In this document: piece by piece, positions 2,403 through 13,188 of the stretch
How the letters are laid out: the number at the start of each line of letters is the position of its first letter
Numbering within the stretch: the stretch's first letter is position 1
Source: Marasmitruncus massiliensis
GTDB lineage: Bacteria; Bacillota; Clostridia; Oscillospirales; Ruminococcaceae
DNA length: 64,000 nucleotides
Reading direction: 5' to 3'
Assembly: GCF_900186535.1 (NCBI RefSeq)
Contig: NZ_FYDE01000004.1
Location: 62,001 to 126,000 of the forward strand
Notes under the pieces: model-generated
Databases searched by the model: none
The model's input: the letters and a program-made list of their open reading frames with translations, nothing else
Told to the model about the DNA's origin: nothing
Position numbers and translations under genes: made by a program

Positions 2403-3218
2403 ATGGCAGTCTCGCACAAATCCGTCATATCGTTTGGGTTGGTCGCAATCCCAATCGCAATGTACACGGCCACGCAGGATAATGATATCCACTTTAACCA
2501 GCTGCACAAAGAAGACCATGCGCGGATCAAATACAAAAAAACCTGCGCCCATTGCGGTCAGGAGATCACCTCTGGCGACATCGTTAAGGGGTATGAGTAC
2601 GATAAAGACCAGTATGTTGTGGTGACGGACGAGGAAATCGAGAAGATTAAAACCGAAAAGGAAAAGTCCATTCAGATTCTGCACTTTGCGCAGTTAAACC
2701 AGATATCCCCTGTTTACTATGATAAGACCTATCAGGCCGTACCCGAGGCCGGCGGCGAAAAGGCGTTTGAACTGCTGCGCGCTGCTTTGATGAGTGAACA
2801 AAAAATTGCGATTGGCAAGACAGTTCTCGGAACCAGCGATACGCTCATGGCAATTATCCCACGGGAAAACGGCGTTCTGATTTCGACGATGTTCTATGCA
2901 GACGACATTAAGGGGCTGCAAAAGTCCTATAACAAACCGGAAGTTTCTGAGCAGGAGCTGACAATGGCCAAGACGCTGATCAGCTCTATGGACACACCTT
3001 TCGACCCGTCACAGTACAAGGACGAATACCAGGACAAGCTTCGTGCCTTGATTGAAACCAAGATATCCGGGAAAGAGGTTGTTGCCGCGCAGCCGGAAAG
3101 CGCGGGCAATGTCATCAGCCTGATGGACGCGCTGAAAGCGTCCATCGAGCAGACGAAGCCTGCATCTTCAATAGAACCGGAAAAGCCCAAACGCGGGCGG
3201 CCTAAGAAGGGCGCATAA
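2403..3218 (+). CDS. ku: Ku protein, non-homologous end joining
   Basis: This is a bacterial Ku homodimer subunit that binds double-strand DNA ends and recruits a ligase. The 271-residue length is normal. The start region SHKSVISFGLVAIPIAMY matches the Ku N-terminal beta-barrel core (usually W/S-x-G-x-I-x-FGLV-x-IP-V), followed by a CxxCGxEI zinc-like pair (C48, C51) and GYEYxKDQYVVV. The C-terminus is basic (KPKRGRPKKGA), like the DNA-binding tails of other bacterial Ku proteins. AAAGGAG precedes the ATG by about nine bases. The stop overlaps the ligase start as TAATG, so the two are translationally coupled. Confidence 0.93.
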   Translation: MAVSHKSVISFGLVAIPIAMYTATQDNDIHFNQLHKEDHARIKYKKTCAHCGQEITSGDIVKGYEYDKDQYVVVTDEEIEKIKTEKEKSIQILHFAQLNQISPVYYDKTYQAVPEAGGEKAFELLRAALMSEQKIAIGKTVLGTSDTLMAIIPRENGVLISTMFYADDIKGLQKSYNKPEVSEQELTMAKTLISSMDTPFDPSQYKDEYQDKLRALIETKISGKEVVAAQPESAGNVISLMDALKASIEQTKPASSIEPEKPKRGRPKKGA

Positions 3219-4156
3219 TGGGCATCTTTGAAGAGCGCAATGTCAAGCCCATGCTGATCGGAGAGATGCGGGACGCCTTTGATTCGCCGGATTACATTTA
3301 TGAACTCAAGCTGGACGGGATTCGCGCGGTGGTTTATCTTGATAGTGTGCGCACTGATTTGCGCAACAAGAGAAATTTAATGGTAACCTCTATATATCCA
3401 GAATTGAGAGACATTCACAAACAGGTGAAAAAACGCTGTATTCTTGACGGTGAAATTGCTGTCATCAATAACGGAAAACCGGACTTTTCTGAAATGCAGC
3501 GCAGGTCGCTCATGAGCAATAAATTCAAGATTCAGATGGCGGTGGCGAAACTGCCGGTATGCTTTACCGCCTTTGACATTCTGTACCTTGATGGGCAGCA
3601 GCTTACCGATCTGCCGCTCATGGAACGCAAGAAGCTGCTGGAGGAAACCGTCGATGAGAGCCCGCGCCTTGCAATATCCCGTTATATCGAGGAAAAAGGC
3701 GTGGCCTTTTATGCACTTGCGGAACAGAACGGCTTGGAGGGCATCGTAGCAAAGCGAAAAGACAGCAGGTATTATTTTGATAAGCGGACAAAGGATTGGA
3801 TCAAGATCAAAAACCTGCAGGACGATGATTTTGTAGTCTGCGGCTATATTGAAAAAGAACGCAATGTCGTGAGTATCGTGTTGGGCCAATATCGAGACAA
3901 TCAGCTCATTTATAAAGGGCATGTGACTTTAGGCATTTCCGGTGATGATTTCAGGCTCATACAACAGCAAAAAAGAACAGATTGTCCTTTCTCCCCTGCC
4001 CCAAAAGGAAATGAGAAGGCTGTCTGGCTTGCTCCGGATCTGGTCTGTACGGTGAAGTATATGGAAAAGACGGAGAGCGGCTCCCTTCGTCAGCCGGTGT
4101 TCAAAGGATTAAGAGTAGATAAATTACCAGGGGATTGCATAGAAAAGGATGGCTGA
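3218..4156 (+). CDS. ligD: ATP-dependent DNA ligase (LigD ligase-domain type), end joining
   Basis: This is a stand-alone nucleotidyltransferase plus OB-fold ligase that seals breaks held by Ku. Motif I is ELKLDGIRA with the adenylated Lys31. The DGE motif (LDGE, E79) and FDILYLDG motif III follow, then EGIVAKR motif IV and DWIKIKN motif V. At 312 residues it is the ligase core only, without the primase-polymerase and phosphoesterase domains of full LigD. ATG overlaps the Ku stop by one base, which sets the start and ties the two proteins into one operon. The symbol follows the family; ligC-type naming is equally possible. Confidence 0.9.
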   Translation: MGIFEERNVKPMLIGEMRDAFDSPDYIYELKLDGIRAVVYLDSVRTDLRNKRNLMVTSIYPELRDIHKQVKKRCILDGEIAVINNGKPDFSEMQRRSLMSNKFKIQMAVAKLPVCFTAFDILYLDGQQLTDLPLMERKKLLEETVDESPRLAISRYIEEKGVAFYALAEQNGLEGIVAKRKDSRYYFDKRTKDWIKIKNLQDDDFVVCGYIEKERNVVSIVLGQYRDNQLIYKGHVTLGISGDDFRLIQQQKRTDCPFSPAPKGNEKAVWLAPDLVCTVKYMEKTESGSLRQPVFKGLRVDKLPGDCIEKDG

Positions 4157-4172
4157 TGCCGTCCTTTTTTCT
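4143..4172 (+). terminator. Terminator of the ku-ligase operon
   Basis: AAAAGGATGGC, TGAT loop, GCCGTCCTTTT, then TT and CTTTT. The 5' arm overlaps the last codons of the ligase gene. Confidence 0.75.
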
Positions 4173-4190
4173 TTTGGTGTCATTTTCCGC

Positions 4191-4218
4191 TTTACTTTTC
4201 AAAATATCCGCATATAAT
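4191..4218 (+). promoter_or_regulatory. Sigma-A-type promoter of the Y-family polymerase gene
   Basis: -35 TTTACT, 16-bp spacer, -10 TATAAT. Transcription should begin near 4225, inside the LexA boxes that follow, so an ATG at 4227 cannot be the translation start. Confidence 0.7.
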
Positions 4219-4219
4219 A

Positions 4220-4246
4220 AGAACAAATGTTTCGAACAATTGTTCT
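4220..4246 (+). promoter_or_regulatory. Two abutting LexA (SOS) boxes
   Basis: Box 1 (4220-4233) reads AGAACAAATGTTTC and box 2 (4233-4246) reads CGAACAATTGTTCT. Both fit the Gram-positive consensus CGAAC-N4-GTTCG and share one base. They lie on the predicted transcription start, where a bound LexA dimer would block initiation. A box with the same AGAACAAATGTT core lies before recA (55182). Confidence 0.85.
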
Positions 4247-4262
4247 TGATTGGGGTGGAAAA

Positions 4263-5510
4263 GTGGAGCGGGTGATCTTGCATATCGACCAGAACAATTT
4301 TTATGCCAGCGTGGAATGTCTGTACAATCCGGCATTGCGGGATAAACCCGTGGCGGTCGGCGGTGACGTGGAGCAACGGCACGGCATTGTCCTGGCGAAA
4401 AATATGATTGCGAAGCGGTTTGGAGTCAAGACAGGCGAAGCGCTGTGGCAGGCACGGCAGAAATGCCCCAATATTGTATTTGTCCCGCCCCACTTTGACC
4501 GCTATTTGCGGTTCTCCAAACTGGCCAAAGAACTCTATCTGCAATACACCGATCAGGTAGAGGCGTTCGGTTTGGATGAATGCTGGCTGGACATCACCGG
4601 CAGCACTCATCTGTTCGGGGACGGCAAGACAGTAGCCGATCAGCTTCGGGAACGGGTTAAGTTTGAATTGGGACTGACCGCTTCCGTTGGCGTATCATTT
4701 AACAAGATTTTTGCCAAGCTGGGCAGTGACTATAAAAAGCCGGATGCCACTACCGTCATCACAAAAGAGAATTACAAACAGATCGTCTGGCCGCTGCCTG
4801 TCAGTGATTTGCTGTACGTTGGGCGGGCGACGGAAGCAAAGCTTCGGCGATATGGCATCTGTACGATCGGAGAGCTTGCCAACGCAAATCCGGATTTGAT
4901 TCAAAGATGGCTGGGCAAGAACGGGGTCATGATCTGGAGATTCGCCAATGGACTAGACTACTCCCCTGTTGCAACCATAGAAAGCAAAATCCAAATCAAG
5001 AGCATCGGCAACAGCACGACCACGCCGCGCGACCTTGTAACCGATGAGGATGTAAAAGTGACTATGACCGTGCTCTGCGAGAGCGTGGCCGCGCGATTGC
5101 GGGAACAGCAGGCAAACTGCTCTACGGTGCAGATCAGTATCCGGGACAACGAGCTTTATTCCTATGAGCGGCAGGCAAAGCTGGACTTTCCGACCTGCGT
5201 CTGCTCCGTAATTCAGGATAAAGCCTTTATGCTCTATAAGCAACACCATAAGGATGGTAAGCCGATCCGCAGCATTGGTGTGCGTGCCTGCGACCTTTCG
5301 AGCGCAGACATCCGGCAAATCTCTTTGCTGCCGGAAGAACTGAAGGCGCAGAAATTGAATGATTTGGAATGCGCAATGGACACGATTCGACGGCGGTTTG
5401 GCAACTTTGCGGTCCGGCGGGGGAATACTTTAGTTGATACCAAACTTTCCAATCTCGACCCGAAGAAAGACCACACGATTCACCCGGTTGCGTTTTTGAA
5501 CGGAGGCTGA
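4263..5510 (+). CDS. Y-family DNA polymerase (DinB/UmuC type), SOS translesion synthesis
   Basis: The enzyme copies damaged templates. The chosen GTG start gives VERVILHIDQNNFYASVE, the classical DinB N-terminus; the upstream ATG (4227) would fall at the transcription start, and its 12 extra residues match nothing in the family. GGGGTGG precedes the GTG closely. Catalytic acidic residues are D9 and D105-E106 (FGLDECWLDI). The steric-gate region NNFYASVE, a helix-hairpin-helix (YGICTIGELANAN) and a little-finger domain follow, for 415 residues. The gene is likely cotranscribed with the next two and is placed under LexA control by the boxes. It is closer to clostridial UmuC/DinB homologues than to Pol IV of enterics. 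Confidence 0.9.
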   Translation: MERVILHIDQNNFYASVECLYNPALRDKPVAVGGDVEQRHGIVLAKNMIAKRFGVKTGEALWQARQKCPNIVFVPPHFDRYLRFSKLAKELYLQYTDQVEAFGLDECWLDITGSTHLFGDGKTVADQLRERVKFELGLTASVGVSFNKIFAKLGSDYKKPDATTVITKENYKQIVWPLPVSDLLYVGRATEAKLRRYGICTIGELANANPDLIQRWLGKNGVMIWRFANGLDYSPVATIESKIQIKSIGNSTTTPRDLVTDEDVKVTMTVLCESVAARLREQQANCSTVQISIRDNELYSYERQAKLDFPTCVCSVIQDKAFMLYKQHHKDGKPIRSIGVRACDLSSADIRQISLLPEELKAQKLNDLECAMDTIRRRFGNFAVRRGNTLVDTKLSNLDPKKDHTIHPVAFLNGG

Positions 5511-5516
5511 TAATTA

Positions 5517-5756
5517 ATGGTAAGAAAAGTAAATGTAGAAGTAGACGTACATTTTGATGTCGATGGTAACATGCAGCCGACCGCAATCAAGTGGGAGGAT
5601 GGCCGCGTATTTTCCGTTGACCGTGTGCTGGACGTGCGGCAGGCGGCAAGCCTGAAAGCGGGCGGCCAGGGCATCCGGTATCTGTGCCGGATTCTTGGGA
5701 AACAAACCTATTTGTGGTTTGAGAATCCGAACTGGTTTGTTGAGGGCAAGCAATAA
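5517..5756 (+). CDS. Small conserved-looking protein between polymerase and SRAP genes, 79 aa
   Basis: The product is not recognised. It begins six bases after the polymerase stop and ends 18 bases before the SRAP gene, so it is almost certainly in the same SOS-regulated transcript. It is rich in beta-strand-forming residues (VNVEVDVHFDVDGNMQP, then WEDGRVFSVDRVLDVRQAAS) and ends with GQGIRYLCRILGKQTYLWFE, suggesting a compact beta-sheet fold. No catalytic motif or membrane segment is seen. The position suggests an accessory factor for translesion synthesis, but this is inference from context only. Confidence 0.7.
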   Translation: MVRKVNVEVDVHFDVDGNMQPTAIKWEDGRVFSVDRVLDVRQAASLKAGGQGIRYLCRILGKQTYLWFENPNWFVEGKQ

Positions 5757-5774
5757 AAAGAGGAGGCAAATCGT

Positions 5775-6344
5775 ATGTGCGGCAGATACCAGTTTACGGC
5801 TGAAGAGAGCCAGGATATCCGCAATATCATTGCGGAGGTGGAACGCAAATGCGGGGTAACCGGCATGAAAACCGGAGAAGTCTATCCGACGAATCTCGTT
5901 CCTGTTCTTTTGCCGTCCGGATCCGATATAGTGCCGGAGCTGCTGTCCTGGGGCTTCCCCAATTTCAGGAACAAGGGTGTGATCATCAACGCCAGGGCTG
6001 AAACCGCCCAGGAAAAGCCGATGTTCAAGCGATGCCTGTCAGAGCGGCGCTGTGTGATTCCGACCACAGGCTTCTATGAATGGGATACGACAAAAAAGAA
6101 ATACCTGTTCCGGCTTCCGGAAGCTCCGGAACTTTATCTGGCCGGGTTGTACAATGACTTTGCCGGAGAGCAACGATTCACAATCCTGACGACTGCCGCG
6201 AATACATCCATTGCAGATGTGCACAACCGAATGCCGCTGGTGCTGCCGAAGGAAGATGTAAGTTTATGGCTGCAGAATACAGCAGCTGCCGTGCTAATTC
6301 TGAATAGAGAGCCGCCGATGCTGGTAAAACAGCCGGTTGCATAA
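5775..6344 (+). CDS. SOS response-associated peptidase (SRAP/YedK/HMCES family)
   Basis: SRAP proteins form a thiazolidine cross-link between an N-terminal cysteine and abasic sites in single-stranded DNA, shielding them. All key residues are here: Cys2 (MCGRY, exposed after Met removal), N72 in NARAET, E102 in GFYEW and H150 in VHNRMP. The length, 189 residues, is slightly below the usual 200-230. AGAGGAGG precedes the ATG. Its place after the polymerase fits the family's known association with SOS genes. Confidence 0.93.
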   Translation: MCGRYQFTAEESQDIRNIIAEVERKCGVTGMKTGEVYPTNLVPVLLPSGSDIVPELLSWGFPNFRNKGVIINARAETAQEKPMFKRCLSERRCVIPTTGFYEWDTTKKKYLFRLPEAPELYLAGLYNDFAGEQRFTILTTAANTSIADVHNRMPLVLPKEDVSLWLQNTAAAVLILNREPPMLVKQPVA

Positions 6345-6586: not shown

Positions 6587-6662
6587 TTGAGTTCGATAAT
6601 AGCGTATGTTTCTAGAGATTATAGCATGGAATTTGATACTGTAAGAGAAAGAGGTAATGAAT

Positions 6663-8456
6663 ATGAGTAGTGGAAATGAACCTTTAATCAAATCAATAAG
6701 TGTCTCTCAAATGTTTGGCTTATATACTCAAAATAAATTAATTGTTAACAGAAAATATCAGCGTAAACTTTGCTGGACAATCGAAGAAAAGCGCAACTTC
6801 ATTGATACAATCATGAATAATTTACCGGTCCCAATGTTTTTACTCGCTGAGGTTGATAATGGGAACTTAGAAATTATTGATGGTATGCAAAGACTTGATG
6901 CGATTTGTTCACTTATTGAGCAAAAATATAGTTTGAAGTCTGGCTTTTTTGATCTCGAAACAATGCCAGATACAATTGATTTAGTTCGCAAAGGAAAACT
7001 GCTTCAAAAGGGAGGGAAAATAACATCGGACATATGTAAAACTATAGCAAATTACCCTTTGCCTGTTTCGATATTTACTGAAAATTCGAGTCGAATAGAA
7101 GAAGCATTCAAAAGAATTAATTCTACAGGAAAGCATTTGTCCCTTCAAGAACTTAGGCAAGTAGGGGTAAATAGCAAATTTGCTAATTTGGTAAGAGAAT
7201 TATCCGCTGAAGTACGTGGAGATATTTCAGAAGATATATTGTTGCTAAACAATATGTCAAACATTAGTTTGAGTAATCATCGATTAAATTATGGTATATA
7301 TACCGGAAATATCTTTTGGATTAATCATGAGGTAATAAACACAACTGCGCTCAGAGCATCTCGAGATGAAGAAATAATTGCTTTTATTATAGCCAATATG
7401 ATATTAGCTCCTGGAGATCGAGATGCATATAATGCTGACACTTTAAATAAATATTACGGATACGACGCTAACCCACTTAATTCTAAAGTTCCATTGGAAA
7501 TGACGAAAATCGAGGATGCTGTTGACAGAATTTCCCTCAAAATTATAAAAACACAATTTAACACAATTTTTTCATTAATAAAAGAAATATTAGAAGAGAA
7601 TAAAAGCACAGTTAAAAACTGCATTTTTACTTCTTTTACCAAATTGAAAGACCTAGCTTATCCATTTCAAGCAGTGTTTATGGCCATTTATACACTAATC
7701 TATAAAGAAAACTTGCAAGCTGTTGACCATACATTATTATATAAAAATTTGAAAGGAATTGGAAATGACCTTTTTTCTGATGATACACTAGATCAGCTAC
7801 GTTTTGTTGTAAAAATGAATTCTACAATATCTTTCATTTCTGGGAAAATTAGACCCGCTTTCTCGATTGCAAGGGTTAGTGATCCTGCAGTTGATGATTG
7901 GACAATGCAATGTACAAGTATAATCATGAAATCAAGAACGGAACAAAATTTTTATGATTACAAAATTGGACTTACAACATTTGGAGCAAAAAAGTTCAAT
8001 ATAGAGTGCTTGGAGAAAATTATAAAATCACTAACAGCGATAAATAATATAGGACCTAATCATATAGGCTATATTTTAATAGGGATTGCAGATAATTTGG
8101 AAGCTGCAGAAAATTATAAAAAGGTATATGGAGAAAGTTATAAAACAGTTGACAGAGTTTTTATTACAGGCATAGAAGCGGAAGCTGCAGCATTACACCA
8201 ATCAATTGATAGATATACTCATAATTTTAAAGAGTACATACAGAATACATTGTCAATACCTACAGCTTATAAACTACATATTATTCAAAATATGTTTACT
8301 CCATTATACTATGGAAAGCAGCTAATTGTCTTGAAAACAGATTTTGGTGAACCTGTTATGTATAACAAAAAATTGTATCAAAGAATGTTTACGGATGTGG
8401 ATGAAGTAGACCCCACTCAGTATAATTTGATTTATAAAAAATTTTATTCAGTATAA
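6663..8456 (+). CDS. DUF262 protein with C-terminal AlbA_2 (Schlafen-like) domain, putative defence protein
   Basis: Residues about 20-180 (numbered from the upstream ATG at 6657) form a DUF262 ParB/Srx-like domain: YQRKLCW, then the DGMQRLDAI nucleotide-binding motif at 75-83 and FKRINSTGKHLS at 151-162. DUF262 is the N-terminal part of GmrS-type and many other phage-defence proteins. No HNH (DUF1524) domain follows. Instead residues about 425-590 resemble AlbA_2: TEQNFYDYKIG with E429, D434 and K436, then LTAINN, YILIGIADN and a final GEPVMYNKKLYQRM strand pair. The start is placed at the second ATG because AAAGAGG is eight bases before it but only two before the first. Codon use is AT-rich, unlike the repair genes. 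DNA or RNA cleavage is possible but unproven. Confidence 0.75.
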   Translation: MSSGNEPLIKSISVSQMFGLYTQNKLIVNRKYQRKLCWTIEEKRNFIDTIMNNLPVPMFLLAEVDNGNLEIIDGMQRLDAICSLIEQKYSLKSGFFDLETMPDTIDLVRKGKLLQKGGKITSDICKTIANYPLPVSIFTENSSRIEEAFKRINSTGKHLSLQELRQVGVNSKFANLVRELSAEVRGDISEDILLLNNMSNISLSNHRLNYGIYTGNIFWINHEVINTTALRASRDEEIIAFIIANMILAPGDRDAYNADTLNKYYGYDANPLNSKVPLEMTKIEDAVDRISLKIIKTQFNTIFSLIKEILEENKSTVKNCIFTSFTKLKDLAYPFQAVFMAIYTLIYKENLQAVDHTLLYKNLKGIGNDLFSDDTLDQLRFVVKMNSTISFISGKIRPAFSIARVSDPAVDDWTMQCTSIIMKSRTEQNFYDYKIGLTTFGAKKFNIECLEKIIKSLTAINNIGPNHIGYILIGIADNLEAAENYKKVYGESYKTVDRVFITGIEAEAAALHQSIDRYTHNFKEYIQNTLSIPTAYKLHIIQNMFTPLYYGKQLIVLKTDFGEPVMYNKKLYQRMFTDVDEVDPTQYNLIYKKFYSV

Positions 8457-8725: not shown

Positions 8726-9913
8726 ATGGAGCAAATCTCTTTTAATGATCTTGAACGAGAGAGATCATTATTTTCCTTGCCAGGCCGAACCGCATATATA
8801 GATGAATGTGGCAACTTTGGTTTTGATTTCAATAATGGAGGATCAAAGTTCTATATCTTATGTGCAGTTGTTGTAAAAAACTCTGATATTGACAAACTCC
8901 ATGCTGCTGTGTCTGTTGTAAAGCTAAATAATGGCTTCGGTCAAACTGAAATGAAATCGAGTGCAATTGGCAGCAACTATCAAAGAAGAAGTAAGATAGT
9001 TGCAGAATTATTGCCAATCGAGTTTAGAGTAATTCTGTTTGTGGCAGATAAGCAGGCATTTATAAGTGGTAGCCCACTTACTTCCTACAGGCAATCCTTC
9101 ATTAAATTTCTTCACCAGCGCTTATATAATGTCCTTTATAATGCATATCCAAAACTGAATATAGTTGAAGACAAAATAGGGACTTCAGAATTTCAGGATT
9201 CCTTTAAAAAATACGTCCGAGAGCATCGGCCCGCGAATCTGTTTAATGAATATGATTTTGATTATACTGACAGTAAGGACTCGTTGCTAGTTCAGTTGGC
9301 TGATATAGTTGGTGGCACAATAAACAAAGTATATATTGATGACCATGCACCACATTATCTGGAAATGCTAAAGGGTAAAATCCTTTGCATCGAAGACTTT
9401 CCGAATAGAACCATTCCATATTTTTCTTCAGCCATTTCTAAGAACACGCAATATGACGAAACTGTTTTTAGCCTTGCCATCCAACAGGCTAAATCGTTTA
9501 TTACTAAATATGAGTATAACGAACTATTTGAAAAAAAGCTACAGATTGCGTTGTTAAAACACCTAATATTTCAAGTCTACAACGTTGATCCATATAACTA
9601 TATTTCATCGCCTCAGTTATTGTCAGTCTTAGAAGAATACGCTGATTCGAGAATCCGTCCAAATTATTTATATCGAAGAATTATAGCTCCTTTGCGAGAC
9701 GCAGGGGTTATTCTTGCTAGTTGTGCACATGGGTATAAGATACCAATATCAGTTGAAGATATTACAACGTATCTTAATCAGACACATACCATAGTGTCTC
9801 CTATGCTTCATAGAATTGAGATATGTAGGAACTTAATTAGACAGAATACTGAGAATGCATTGGATGTGCTGAATGACCCCGCTTTTTTAAAATATAAAAA
9901 CTACTTTGATTAG
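8726..9913 (+). CDS. DUF3800 domain protein with C-terminal winged-helix-like region
   Basis: The N-terminal signature YIDECGNFG (residues 24-32) matches DUF3800 (usual form YIDESG), and DSLLVQLADIVGGTI (185-199) matches the second family block with its D-x(7)-D acidic pair; together these suggest an RNase H-like metal-binding fold. Residues about 285-340 (LLSVLEEYADSRIRPNYLYRRIIAPLRDAGVI) read as a winged helix. AAAAGGAG precedes the ATG by seven bases. DUF3800 genes are common in defence islands and near restriction systems, but the activity is not established. It stands alone with large spacers on both sides. Ser-to-Cys in YIDESG is the one variation in the core motif. Confidence 0.75.
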   Translation: MEQISFNDLERERSLFSLPGRTAYIDECGNFGFDFNNGGSKFYILCAVVVKNSDIDKLHAAVSVVKLNNGFGQTEMKSSAIGSNYQRRSKIVAELLPIEFRVILFVADKQAFISGSPLTSYRQSFIKFLHQRLYNVLYNAYPKLNIVEDKIGTSEFQDSFKKYVREHRPANLFNEYDFDYTDSKDSLLVQLADIVGGTINKVYIDDHAPHYLEMLKGKILCIEDFPNRTIPYFSSAISKNTQYDETVFSLAIQQAKSFITKYEYNELFEKKLQIALLKHLIFQVYNVDPYNYISSPQLLSVLEEYADSRIRPNYLYRRIIAPLRDAGVILASCAHGYKIPISVEDITTYLNQTHTIVSPMLHRIEICRNLIRQNTENALDVLNDPAFLKYKNYFD

Positions 9914-10060: not shown

Positions 10061-10146
10061 TTGTAAAAAGCTGTTTGTTTATACAAGTTATAGCTATACC
10101 GTAAAGCAAAAGCACATACTAAAGAAAGGTAATGAGAGGAAAAGAC

Positions 10147-12177
10147 ATGCCATATATGACCATAGACTTTACGTATGACCAAAAAGATAAAAAAGAAAAA
10201 TTAGATCGCATTACTCAAAAAACATGGAATTTTTTTATACGTGATGCAAGGCGGCAACGAGGATTTGAGAACCGCGAAGGTCAACAGAATATGGCATTAG
10301 ATATTATTCAAGCAATAGAATCTAACCAGCATATAGCGGTGGAGGCGGGAGTTGGTATTGGAAAATCTTTTGCTTATCTTGTGCCTGCCTTACTTTACAA
10401 TCGTGAGTTTGCAACTCCAGTTGCAATTGCGACTTCAACAATTGCTCTGCAGGAACAATTAAAATCAGATATTAAGGTTCTAAAAAAACTTCTCAATTTG
10501 CACCCGGAAGTAATTCTGGCAAAGGGCCAGACTCACTACGTTTGTCGTATGAGGGCTGATAATTATCTGAGTCAAAAAAAGGACAAATTAACAGAAATGC
10601 TCCGCCGAGATATTAAACAAGGTAAAAGTGATCGAAGAGACTTCGAATATGACATTGAAAATAGAATTTGGGATAATATTAATATTAGAGATTATGGTTT
10701 TAAAACGTGTGATCGCTGCCACTATAAAAAGCGTTGTTCGTTTAAAATCATGAGAGATGCTATGATAAGCACTAATGGAATTGTTCTTTGCAATCAGGAT
10801 CTCCTAACGGTTCATCTTCAAAAAATAAGCGGGGGATTTTCGCCTCTTTTCAATCCTAAACTATCGCTAATTGTAATAGATGAGGCTCACAATTTGGAGG
10901 ATAAGGTTCGTAATGTGTTTATTAAAAGGTATGGTAAGGAACAAATCATGGCTCATATTGTTCAGGCCAGTAAAAGTGTACGAAAACACGGTACAAATAT
11001 AGATGTACTTATCGACAAACTAAATTTAGTATTAGATAAATTCTATGATCATTTGCAAAGATTAATTCGAATACAAATCAATACAGCAATGAATGATATG
11101 AAGTATGCAGATAGATTTTTTCTGCCTTTTGACGATGAAACAAAATTATTGATAAAAGACACTTACAGAGTTATCTCAAGAATTTCTGAAAACGTTCAGC
11201 TTCATTCCGCAATGAATAACAGATTATTTGACGCAGCAATTGATGAAGTAATCACGATCGAGAATTTTTTTGCAAAATTAAATTAACAAAACAAAAAGAA
11301 CTTGTATTGGCTTGAACAGAACAATAAAAGTGTAGGTATAGTTTCTTGCCCCAAAAATACTGCGGCGCTGGTGAGCCGGTTATATTTTGAAAATGAAAAA
11401 TTTAGAACTATCATGACTTCGGCAACTCTTACTAACACTGTTTATGGAAGTGAAGAAGAAAAATATGCCTACTTCATGTCTAATACTGGTTTTCCAATCA
11501 AAAACGGTAAAGGTTTTCTATCTGAACCAAAGCCATCTCCATTTCCTTACGACGAACATGCGATGATTTATTACTGTGCTGATCTTCCACACCCAACAAA
11601 ACAGCACAAAGAGTTCATGGATAAAGCGGTTAATAGGCTTGTTGAACTTTTCGAAATTTCCCATGGGAAAGCCCTTGTATTGTTTACAGCGAAATCCGAT
11701 CTGGAACAAGTCTATAAGTTGTTGTCGGGAATGAACTTGCCTTATAAAATACTTAGGCAACAAGGTAATTCATCTCAGGAGAAAATTACAGGGGAGTTCC
11801 GTGAGAACACAGATTCAGTATTGCTTGGCACAGGAGCCTATTGGGAAGGGATTAATATTAAAGGAGAGAGTCTCTCTAATCTAATAATCTTTCGATTGCC
11901 GTTTCCTATACCGGATCCGATTATCCAATATAAAGGTTCTATGGCAAAAGACGCTCTTATGGATGTTAATGTTCCTGAGATGATTTTGAAATTAAAGCAA
12001 GGAATAGGCAGGCTGATTAGAAATTTTGATGATAAGGGCATTGTTTCTATTGTAGATTCCCGCCTTAATGACAATTCTACAGCCCCATATAAAGATATGG
12101 TATGGGCCGCGCTTCCGATCCATAATCGCACAAGCAGTTTAGAAGAAATCAGGACTTTTTATAGAAAACTTTTTTAA
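10147..12177 (+). pseudogene. DinG/XPD-family helicase interrupted by one in-frame stop
   Basis: The two halves (10147-11286 and 11287-12177) lie in the same frame, separated only by a TAA at 11284-11286. The first half has Walker A EAGVGIGKS, the four iron-sulphur cysteines (C138, then C193-x2-C196-x5-C202, counted from the ATG at 10132) and the DEAH box. The second has TSATL, the GTGAYWEG motif V region and QGIGRLIR motif VI. All helicase motifs are intact, so the stop is recent or suppressed. The second half has no credible start (a TTG without a ribosome site). The ATG at 10147 is preferred because GAGAGG precedes it by eight bases. This is a 5'-3' ATP-dependent DNA helicase by family. 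Confidence 0.8.
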
Positions 12178-12217: not shown

Positions 12218-12230
12218 GTGTATATCTATA

Positions 12231-12259
12231 TTGCAATTTTTGGAATAGCATGGTATAAT
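12231..12259 (+). promoter_or_regulatory. Strong promoter of the candidate small RNA
   Basis: -35 TTGCAA, 17-bp spacer, -10 TATAAT (with a TGG just before it). Predicted start is near 12266. Confidence 0.65.
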
Positions 12260-12265
12260 ATTCCT

Positions 12266-12476
12266 ATGGAGTTATATTATGACAGCAAAAAAACTCCCAC
12301 AGCATACCGATTGCTTCCAACAACCGGTATGCATGCGCCTTAAAAGATGTTAAAGCACAACATCCATAAGACTTATGAGAGGTTCTTTCCATGATATTTT
12401 ATCATGGTTAAGATACATTTTTCAAGGGCTTTTAGATGTTTCAGTGAAAGGTAACATCTGGAAGCTCTTATTTTTT
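12266..12476 (+). ncRNA. Candidate structured small RNA, about 210 nt
   Basis: Between a good promoter and a terminator lie five consecutive hairpins: GGAGTT/AACTCC (12268-12297), GCATACCG/CGGTATGC (12302-12332), GATGTT/AACATC (12346-12364), CCATGATA/TATCATGG (12389-12407) and the terminator stem (12424-12469). The only reading frames are 18 and 25 codons and overlap the first two stems; the ATG at 12266 would sit on the predicted transcription start. No known RNA family was recognised by eye. The call rests on geometry only. Confidence 0.4.
12424..12476 (+). terminator. Terminator ending the candidate small RNA
   Basis: AAGGGCTTTTAGATGTT pairs over 17 positions (three G-U) with AACATCTGGAAGCTCTT across a 12-nt loop, followed by ATTTTTT. 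Confidence 0.65.
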
Positions 12477-12997: not shown

Positions 12998-13073
12998 TGG
13001 TGGAGACGAAGAGGATCGAACTCTCGACCTTACGGATGCGAACCGTACGCTCTCCCAGCTGAGCTACGCCCCC
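12998..13073 (-). tRNA. tRNA-Ala (anticodon CGC)
   Basis: Full cloverleaf with encoded CCA. The acceptor GGGGGCG pairs with CGTCTCC and contains the G3-U70 pair that identifies alanine. The D-arm is GCTC-AGCTGGGA-GAGC; the anticodon stem TACGG/CCGTA holds loop TTCGCAT (anticodon CGC, codon GCG); the T-arm is GAGAG-TTCGATC-CTCTT. Confidence 0.93.
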
Positions 13074-13081
13074 AAATGGTA

Positions 13082-13104
13082 CCGGACAAGCAGAACCTGT
13101 CCGG
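13082..13104 (-). repeat. Hairpin between the two tRNA genes
   Basis: CCGGACA and TGTCCGG enclose a 9-nt loop. It is likely a processing or spacing structure within the common precursor. No T-run is placed to make it a strong terminator. Confidence 0.4.
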
Positions 13105-13111
13105 ATTTTGC

Positions 13112-13188
13112 TGGTGGGAATAGAGGGACTCGAACCCGCGACTTCCTGCGTGTGATGCAGGCACTCTAACCAGCTGAGCTATACTCCC
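13112..13188 (-). tRNA. tRNA-Val (anticodon CAC)
   Basis: Cloverleaf with encoded CCA. Acceptor GGGAGTA/TATTCCC, D-arm GCTCAGCTGGTTAGAGT, anticodon stem CCTGC/GCAGG with loop ATCACAC (anticodon CAC, codon GUG), T-arm GCGGG-TTCGAGT-CCCTC. It is upstream of tRNA-Ala in the same direction. Confidence 0.93.

What the first reader, a model, noticed from the sequence alone, without database searches (positions are those of the whole stretch)
6657..8456. DUF262 joined to an AlbA_2/Schlafen-like domain instead of an HNH nuclease
The N-terminal third has the DUF262 nucleotide-sensing motif (DGMQRL, FKRINSTGKHLS), as in GmrSD-type defence proteins. The C-terminal 165 residues carry E-x4-D-x-K, a LTAINN helix, IGIADN and YNKKLYQRM, which look like AlbA_2. 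If correct, a phage sensor is fused to a putative RNA-active domain, rather than to the HNH nuclease usual in this family. The middle 240 residues match nothing recognised.
Basis: partly seen in the sequence, partly recalled or inferred. Interest (0 to 1): 0.72.

Follow-up and report, generated by a model that had tools for sequence, protein, structure and literature searches.

The report
Phage-sensor domain fused to Schlafen-type RNase
A single bacterial gene joins a sensor domain known from anti-phage restriction enzymes to a Schlafen-like nuclease domain of the kind animals use against viruses; relatives occur in many bacteria, one of them in a prophage of the laboratory strain E. coli W.

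Summary
Window 6657-8456 encodes a 599-aa protein with a DUF262/GmrSD_N N-terminus and a SLFN_AlbA_2 C-terminus. The C-terminal match is weak in this sequence alone (Pfam E 0.03), but 97 of 102 homologous C-termini match the family (best 9e-13). A confident model of the domain has only AlbA_2/Schlafen-type structures in its first 14 PDB hits. The Schlafen catalytic motif E-x4-[D/E]-x-K is complete in 106 of 106 full-length homologues. The fusion has a fixed size (578-648 aa), occurs in at least 8 phyla and has no constant partner gene. This copy is low-GC cargo of a 52.9-kb integrative element; others are on plasmids, and 9 of 29 unbroken viral-contig loci lie in the gpA-gpQ anti-phage hotspot of P2-like prophages, as in E. 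coli W. Most likely it is a one-protein defence system: an NTP-dependent DUF262 sensor unleashes a Schlafen-type RNase, probably on tRNA. RNase activity, substrate, trigger and defence are inferred, not shown. The literature searches made here found no description of the fusion; a 2025 preprint on bacterial Schlafens could not be read.

The parts
6657..8456 (+). whole gene: DUF262 - helical middle - SLFN_AlbA_2 fusion protein, 599 aa (Met3 at 6663 may be the true start)
6711..7157 (+). DUF262 / GmrSD_N domain (residues 19-167), ParB/Srx-like fold; putative NTP-binding sensor
   Evidence: Pfam PF03235 E 1.1e-18; Foldseek matches to BrxU and to ParB/Noc N-domains, all above E 0.001
6879..6893 (+). 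nucleotide-pocket motif DG[M/L]QR (residues 75-79), counterpart of DGQQR
   Evidence: D, G, Q, R in 107 of 107
7107..7142 (+). second DUF262 motif F-x-R-I-N-S-x-G-x-x-L-S (residues 151-162)
7224..7889 (+). mostly helical middle region (residues 190-411); the part up to residue 315 is covered by PADLOC NsnA
7890..8453 (+). SLFN_AlbA_2 domain (residues 412-599); putative nuclease effector
   Evidence: 97 of 102 homologous C-termini match PF04326 at E<=0.01; Foldseek
7941..7964 (+). putative catalytic motif E429-x4-D434-x-K436, counterpart of Schlafen ExxxxExK
   Evidence: complete in 106 of 106 full-length homologues; SLFN14 E206/E211/K213 (PMC12215978, passages)
8091..8093 (+). D479, candidate third carboxylate (D 93, E 11, N 2 of 106)
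   Evidence: compare rSLFN13 D248 (PMC5862951, passages); not superposed
8382..8384 (+). R576, conserved arginine near the end of the domain
   Evidence: 106 of 107, one gap
12998..13134 (.). right copy of a 137-bp perfect direct repeat (tRNA-Ala plus the 3' end of tRNA-Val) that bounds the integrative element carrying the gene; left copy at G000 C1:22128-22264

Best explanation
A one-protein, mobile anti-phage (or anti-mobile-element) system. The N-terminal DUF262 domain binds and probably hydrolyses an NTP and senses an infection cue, plausibly modified phage DNA as in GmrSD, BrxU and SspE. Through the helical middle region it releases the C-terminal Schlafen/AlbA_2 domain, which cuts RNA, most likely tRNA, with a metal-dependent E-x4-D/E-x-K site. 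Translation stops and the phage fails (abortive infection or growth arrest). Shown by computation here: domain identity, fold match, conserved catalytic motif, fixed architecture, mobile settings, defence-hotspot location, no constant partner. Inferred: NTPase activity, trigger, RNase activity, tRNA as target, the coupling, the defence itself.
For: GmrSD_N E 1.1e-18. SLFN_AlbA_2 in 97 of 102 C-termini, best 9.4e-13. Models with pLDDT 92.4 and 94.5. Foldseek: BrxU first, then ParB/Noc, for the whole protein; DIP2311, SAMD9 tRNase domain, SLFN5, SLFN13 for the C-terminus, three chains with E below 0.001. E-x4-[DE]-x-K in 106/106; in SLFN14 each of these three residues is essential for RNA cleavage (PMC12215978, passages). 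9 of 29 unbroken viral-contig loci lie between Phage_GPA and Phage_portal genes (7 different proteins), the P2 hotspot reported to hold anti-phage systems (PMC9122126, passages); E. coli W has the same arrangement. Patchy: full-length in 3 of 398 genomes of the phylum, the window's own included, and in the window's genome alone of 61 relatives. 8 phyla, 18 label changes against a minimum of 7. Window copy: GC 31.1% against 48.9% around it, cargo of an integrative element.
Against: No activity was measured for this family in anything found here. Fold and motif do not settle RNA versus DNA. The window sequence alone is below the Pfam cut-off, and its two nearest relatives, L012 and L014, show no AlbA_2 match at E<=0.05 when scanned as whole proteins; P0002, P0003 and L113 match but below the cut-off. 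TM-scores of the C-terminal domain to AlbA_2 structures are modest (0.46-0.52 of the query for DIP2311 and SAMD9, 0.33-0.37 for SLFN5/13, the latter with probabilities 0.38-0.90), and all PDB matches of the whole model are above E 0.001. SAMD9's acidic residues are spaced differently (E184/E196/D241; PMC11221667). The neighbour signal is weak: 185 against 89 PADLOC profiles matched among 140 near and 140 far neighbours, profiles overlap and proteins with a hit are not counted; phage integrases are equal, 3 of 140 in each. A P2 hotspot is no proof, since it also carries partition and toxin genes (PMC9122126).
Confidence: 0.6

Rival explanations
1. A type IV restriction enzyme with a new nuclease: DUF262 recognises modified DNA as in GmrSD/BrxU and the AlbA_2 domain cuts or nicks DNA in place of the HNH domain.
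For: GmrSD, BrxU and SspE, the DUF262 enzymes with described chemistry in the review passages seen, act on DNA (PMC10952713); BrxU is the first Foldseek hit of the whole protein; SAMD9's AlbA_2 binds DNA and the SLFN5-N entry is titled as ssRNA-cleaving and DNA-binding; the SLFN14 paper compares the site with type II restriction enzymes.
Against: The closest catalytic motif, ExxxxExK, is proved for RNA/tRNA cleavage in Schlafens, and a SAMD9 tRNase domain is among the top structural matches.
Confidence: 0.2
2. The AlbA_2 domain only binds nucleic acid and the protein is a regulator or partition/maintenance factor of mobile elements.
For: DUF262 shares the ParB/Srx fold; the copies examined closely sit on plasmids, prophages and an integrative element.
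Against: The three residues whose mutation kills SLFN14 catalysis are kept (D or E at the second) in 106 of 106. No HTH domain was found in the protein. Of 803 E. coli genomes with a match to the IncF-type gene only 105 hold at least 80% of it in one place, so it looks dispensable for the plasmid.
Confidence: 0.08
3. A plasmid- or prophage-borne toxin module used for element maintenance or exclusion of rival elements rather than phage defence.
For: The IncF copy lies beside pemIK; the copies examined closely are on mobile elements.
Against: No antitoxin-like constant partner; toxicity not known; prophage hotspot position favours competition between phages.
Confidence: 0.1
4. One part of a local multi-gene system with the DUF3800 protein (8726-9913) and the DinG-like helicase downstream.
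For: Same strand, same low-GC stretch (31-36%); the DUF3800 protein matches PADLOC candidate PDC-M04A weakly (E 1.3e-5).
Against: A gap of about 270 bp; in 99 loci outside P2-like prophages no neighbour family lies within 500 bp of the gene in more than 2.
Confidence: 0.05

Closest known systems
GmrSD / BrxU / SspE (type IV and phosphorothioate-dependent restriction enzymes)
   Same: DUF262 N-domain with the D-G-x-Q-R pocket; single polypeptide (BrxU chain 580 residues); BrxU is the top PDB fold match of the whole model
   Different: no DUF1524 HNH nuclease; a SLFN_AlbA_2 domain instead; first Q of DGQQR is M or L
Schlafen N-domain (SLFN13/14) and SAMD9/SAMD9L AlbA_2 tRNase domain
   Same: AlbA_2 fold; the E-x4-E/D-x-K motif of Schlafens; a nearby carboxylate
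   Different: one AlbA_2 unit in a bacterial protein, fused to DUF262; motif spacing differs from SAMD9; no RNase test
Menshen (PADLOC NsnA) and PD-T4-2
   Same: the closest DUF262 profiles in PADLOC: NsnA 5.1e-25 over residues 12-315, PD-T4-2_A 2.9e-20
   Different: in Menshen the DUF262 gene goes with a separate predicted OLD nuclease (PMC10952713, passages); that NsnA is Menshen's and that PD-T4-2 has two genes is recalled; here the effector is in the same chain and no partner recurs
ptuXYZ (DUF262 protein with a separate BECR-fold RNase)
   Same: pairs a DUF262 protein with an RNase effector (PMC11980606, passages)
   Different: three genes, unrelated RNase fold
Bacterial Schlafens in anti-phage defence (Taboada et al. 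2025 preprint, known only as a citation in PMC12839542)
   Same: bacterial Schlafen-domain proteins reported as anti-phage
   Different: cannot be compared: the preprint is not held, so overlap with this fusion is unknown

Membership tests
GmrSD-type restriction enzymes | DUF262 / GmrSD_N domain | tested here: met
   E 1.1e-18, 68.5 bits, cut-off 33.2
GmrSD-type restriction enzymes | (I/V)DGQQR nucleotide motif | tested here: inconclusive
   D, G, second Q and R in 107/107; first Q is M (81) or L (26)
GmrSD-type restriction enzymes | DUF1524 HNH nuclease domain | tested here: not met
   no GmrSD_C match at E up to 1; among 102 C-termini the only widespread family is SLFN_AlbA_2
GmrSD-type restriction enzymes | cleavage of modified DNA, NTP-dependent | not testable with these tools
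   needs biochemistry
SLFN_AlbA_2 domain proteins (PF04326) | sequence match to the family | tested here: met
   97 of 102 C-termini at E<=0.01, best 9.4e-13. As whole proteins, eight DUF262 members were scanned: P0004 and P0005 pass the 25.3-bit cut-off; P0001 (15.3 bits), P0002, P0003 and L113 are below it; L012 and L014 have no match at E<=0.05
SLFN_AlbA_2 domain proteins (PF04326) | AlbA_2 fold | tested here: met
   first 14 Foldseek PDB chains are AlbA_2/Schlafen-type (DIP2311 as an AlbA_2 protein is recalled); TM-scores 0.33-0.52 of the query
Catalytic Schlafens | ExxxxExK catalytic motif | tested here: met
   E-x4-[DE]-x-K in 106 of 106; D instead of E at the second place in 83 of 106
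Catalytic Schlafens | two-lobed (N-lobe and C-lobe) N-domain | tested here: not met
   one AlbA_2 unit in 188 aa; a dimer could supply the second, not tested
Catalytic Schlafens | endoribonuclease activity on tRNA/rRNA | not testable with these tools
   needs biochemistry
Menshen / PD-T4-2 | DUF262 protein of the same profile | tested here: inconclusive
   matches NsnA and PD-T4-2_A over the N-terminal part only
Menshen / PD-T4-2 | partner gene(s) beside the DUF262 gene | tested here: not met
   outside 11 P2-like loci no neighbour family lies within 500 bp in more than 2 of 99 loci; neighbours were not scanned for the partner profiles by name beyond the top lists

The most novel reading that the evidence does not exclude
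A restriction-like sensor of modified phage DNA wired to a Schlafen tRNase: DNA is what is recognised but tRNA is what is cut, in one polypeptide. That would make it an RNA-cutting counterpart of type IV restriction enzymes and a bacterial analogue of SAMD9/Schlafen antiviral proteins, with DUF262 acting as a reusable nucleotide switch that accepts DNase or RNase effectors.
Probability: 0.4. Interest if true: 0.8.

Novelty: new variant of a known kind. Interest (0 to 1): 0.62.

Why it matters
Both halves are known separately, but the literature searches made here (listings, and passages of selected papers) did not turn up the pairing. RefSeq labels E. coli members 'GmrSD restriction endonuclease domain-containing protein', which hides the effector. 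If the reading is right, a common annotation is misleading, DUF262 is a general switch not tied to HNH DNases, and an antiviral RNase domain shared with animal SAMD9/Schlafen proteins has a compact one-gene bacterial form. It can be tested at once: an intact copy sits in the P2-like prophage hotspot of the laboratory strain E. coli W.

Tried and rejected
HNH or another nuclease in the C-terminus: rejected, no Pfam match. Chance resemblance to AlbA_2: rejected by family-wide Pfam, fold and motif results. The strongest match of the profiles among PDB sequences, a blue-light photoreceptor (2mwg, E 0.0012 and 0.0006), was set aside: the printed alignment shows no E-x4-D-x-K there and it is not in the 50 Foldseek rows shown. 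A conserved operon partner: looked for and not found. Relatives in viral contigs with the single sequence: none; the five-sequence alignment found 35. Phage records: 63 with a match, 0 covering 80%; the 20 rows shown are N-terminal. That PADLOC's NsnA belongs to Menshen is recalled; a paper search gave only unrelated uses in the 15 of 73 papers listed.

Rows dropped before counts: L013, L026, L051, L086, L118, L119, L121, L123, L124, L126 (internal stops or contig end), duplicates L093, L114, L125 in protein counts, and L103 (452 aa) in the full-length motif count. Of 309 confirmed genome loci only the best 80 were kept by the tool. For the neighbour test 140 of 204 near (under 3 kb) and 140 of 149 far (5 kb or more) proteins were scanned.

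Full report
What is there. Window 6657-8456 (+) is one open frame of 599 codons. Pfam finds GmrSD_N/DUF262 at residues 19-167 (E 1.1e-18) and a sub-threshold SLFN_AlbA_2 match at 429-482 (E 0.03); no HNH domain is seen. PADLOC's nearest profiles are NsnA (5.1e-25, residues 12-315) and PD-T4-2_A (2.9e-20), so the middle of the protein is partly covered by a known profile. phmmer against PDB sequences finds nothing at E up to 1.

Homologues. The plasmid collection holds 1494 records with a match, 144 of them covering at least 80% of the query; the rows shown that cover 96% or more have 31-34% identity. An alignment of five such proteins (A1) found 309 confirmed relatives in the genome collection (best 80 kept) and 35 in viral contigs. 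After dropping broken, cut and duplicate ones, 107 unique proteins remained: one of 452 aa (L103), the other 106 between 578 and 648 aa, so the architecture is fixed. The search patterns came from the N-terminus, so only the C-terminal conservation is free of that bias.

The C-terminal domain. Scanned one by one, 97 of 102 C-termini match SLFN_AlbA_2 at E<=0.01, the best at 9.4e-13. As whole proteins the picture is weaker: P0004 and P0005 (E. coli) pass Pfam's cut-off, P0002, P0003 and L113 match below it, and L012 and L014, the nearest relatives of the window protein, have no match at E<=0.05. AlphaFold2 gives pLDDT 92.4 for the whole protein and 94.5 for residues 412-599 alone. Foldseek of the latter lists in its first 14 places only DIP2311 (3lmm), SAMD9 (9o0d tRNase domain, 7ksp), SLFN5 (7cux) and SLFN13 (5yd0); three chains have E below 0.001, TM-scores are 0.46-0.52 of the query for the first two proteins and 0.33-0.37 for the Schlafens, and the rows after them have probabilities of 0.08 or less (50 rows shown). 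That DIP2311 is an AlbA_2 protein is recalled. The whole model matches BrxU first and then ParB/Noc N-domains, with SAMD9 chains at probability 0.89-0.99, all above E 0.001. Against predicted viral proteins it finds GmrSD_N/DUF262 proteins first.

The active site. The motif E429-x4-[D/E]434-x-K436 is complete in 106 of 106 full-length proteins; position 434 is D in 83 and E in 23. In SLFN14 the motif ExxxxExK (E206, E211, K213) holds the metal-binding glutamates and a lysine that meets the RNA phosphate, and changing any of the three abolishes cleavage (PMC12215978, passages). In rat SLFN13 E205A and E210A are inactive and D248 contributes (PMC5862951, passages). D479 here is D or E in 104 of 106 and is the likely counterpart of that third residue; this is inference, as coordinates were not superposed. 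SAMD9L uses the same fold and its E198/D243 are needed for antiviral activity, but its glutamates are spaced differently (PMC11221667, passages).

The N-terminal domain. D75, G76, Q78 and R79 are 107 of 107. The review passages read give (I/V)-D-G-Q-Q-R as the NTP pocket of DUF262, with NTP-stimulated or NTP-hydrolysing activity in GmrSD, BrxU and SspE (PMC10952713). The first Q is replaced by M (81) or L (26) in this family.

Setting of this copy. The gene has 31.1% GC against 48.9% for the 124 kb held around it; the DUF3800 gene (35.7%) and the DinG-like stretch (35.9%) share the low GC, whereas Ku, ligase, Y-family polymerase and SRAP genes upstream do not (46.6-52.5%). Of nine upstream proteins scanned, six are ParA-like, ParB_N, a type II/IV secretion ATPase (T2SSE), a TraG-like ATPase, a T4SS coupling protein and a tyrosine integrase; no relaxase was seen among them. 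A 137-bp perfect direct repeat containing tRNA-Ala and the 3' end of tRNA-Val occurs at window 12998-13134 and at C1:22128-22264, next to the integrase. The gene is therefore cargo of an integrative, probably conjugative, element of about 52.9 kb. Of 61 relatives searched only the window's own genome has a full-length homologue; four others match over the N-terminus alone. Of 398 genomes of the phylum three have one, the window's included.

Setting of other copies. Nine of 29 unbroken viral-contig loci (7 different proteins) lie between a Phage_GPA replication gene and a Phage_portal gene (clusters; Pfam check on six neighbours from five of the loci). This is the cos-proximal hotspot that Rousset et al. 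define between gpA and gpQ and show to hold anti-phage systems (PMC9122126, passages); the words DUF262, GmrSD and Schlafen do not occur in its main text, and its tables could not be opened. E. coli W has this arrangement; the gene type is in 17 of 5,426 E. coli genomes at >=80% coverage. Another type is in 28 of 5,426 genomes; in the three looked at it lies between baseplate V and virion morphogenesis genes of P2-like prophages, in one of them with a shorter annotated frame, and in two further rows an IS1 lies within it. A third lies beside pemIK on IncF plasmids: 803 of 5,426 genomes have some match, 105 with at least 80% of the gene in one place. Other copies are on Klebsiella and Azotobacter plasmids. 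The setting of most chromosomal homologues was not worked out one by one.

Partners. Outside 11 P2-like loci no neighbour family lies within 500 bp of the gene in more than 2 of 99 loci, and the largest families anywhere in the flanks hold 7 of 99, with first members that look like ABC transporters and other housekeeping proteins. Near neighbours match 185 PADLOC profiles against 89 for neighbours 5 kb or more away, which is suggestive only, since profiles overlap; phage integrases are equal, 3 of 140 in each set. On a quick tree of 106 proteins the 8 phyla of 76 labelled rows need 18 label changes (least possible 7; shuffled mean 42.7), so there is both clustering and mixing across phyla; that is no proof of transfer, and some rows are metagenome bins.

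The effector is modular. In one genome of the same phylum a protein of 413 aa without a DUF262 match ends in the same domain (profile E 7.2e-55), third in a three-gene row.

How it most likely works. DUF262 binds NTP and meets an infection cue, the helical part passes the signal, and the Schlafen-type site cuts RNA, probably tRNA, stopping growth. The identity of both domains, the catalytic motif, the one-gene architecture and the mobile setting of the copies looked at are supported by the calls above. The cue, the NTPase, the substrate and protection itself are inference. The main rival is a DNA-cutting restriction enzyme with an unusual nuclease.

Novelty. Searches for DUF262 with AlbA_2 (0 papers), with Schlafen (one paper, where both stand in separate places as partners of HEPN domains, passages), Schlafen with anti-phage or AlbA_2, GmrSD architectures, bacterial Schlafens and ParB with Schlafen (two papers) gave no description of the fusion in the listings and passages read. 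Machnicka et al. list DUF4268, DUF4357 and DNA_binding_1 as added domains in GmrSD homologues (PMC4619093, passages). Taboada et al. 2025 on bacterial Schlafens is known only from a citation (PMC12839542, passages) and could not be read. Pfam scores both domains above cut-off in two E. coli members, so database users could see the pairing. I therefore call it a new variant of a known kind.

Noticed in passing
window 12998-13134 and G000 C1:22128-22264: 137-bp perfect direct repeat (whole tRNA-Ala plus the 3' end of tRNA-Val) bounding a 52.9-kb integrative, probably conjugative, element with a tyrosine integrase at its left end.
   Followed up: yes
window 12219-12349 and G000 C1:21915-22044: A second, imperfect repeat (131 bp, 85% identical), one copy inside the element and one just outside it; perhaps a trace of an older insertion at the same tRNA.
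   Followed up: no
window 10132-11286 and 11302-12177: DinG/YoaA-like helicase read as two ORFs in the same frame, separated by an in-frame stop; they match the first and second half of the YoaA profile, so the gene looks interrupted.
   Followed up: no
window 8726-9913: DUF3800 protein (E 1.8e-13), weak match to the PADLOC candidate PDC-M04A, in the same low-GC cargo stretch.
   Followed up: partly
window 2403-6344: Ku, an ATP-dependent ligase, a Y-family polymerase and an SRAP protein in a row on the element: a mobile end-joining and translesion set.
   Followed up: no
L133 342-4448: Three-gene row in another genome of the phylum: a 583-aa protein without a Pfam match, a 308-aa protein with a sigma-70 region 4 domain, and a 413-aa protein ending in the same AlbA_2 domain: a possible separate defence operon with the same effector.
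   Followed up: partly
IncF plasmids of E. coli, e.g. L010 4998-6308 and L011 5001-5471: Many copies of the IncF-type gene are partial: of 803 E. coli genomes with a match only 105 keep at least 80% in one place; the two stretches looked at carry drug-resistance genes and IS26 nearby.
   Followed up: partly
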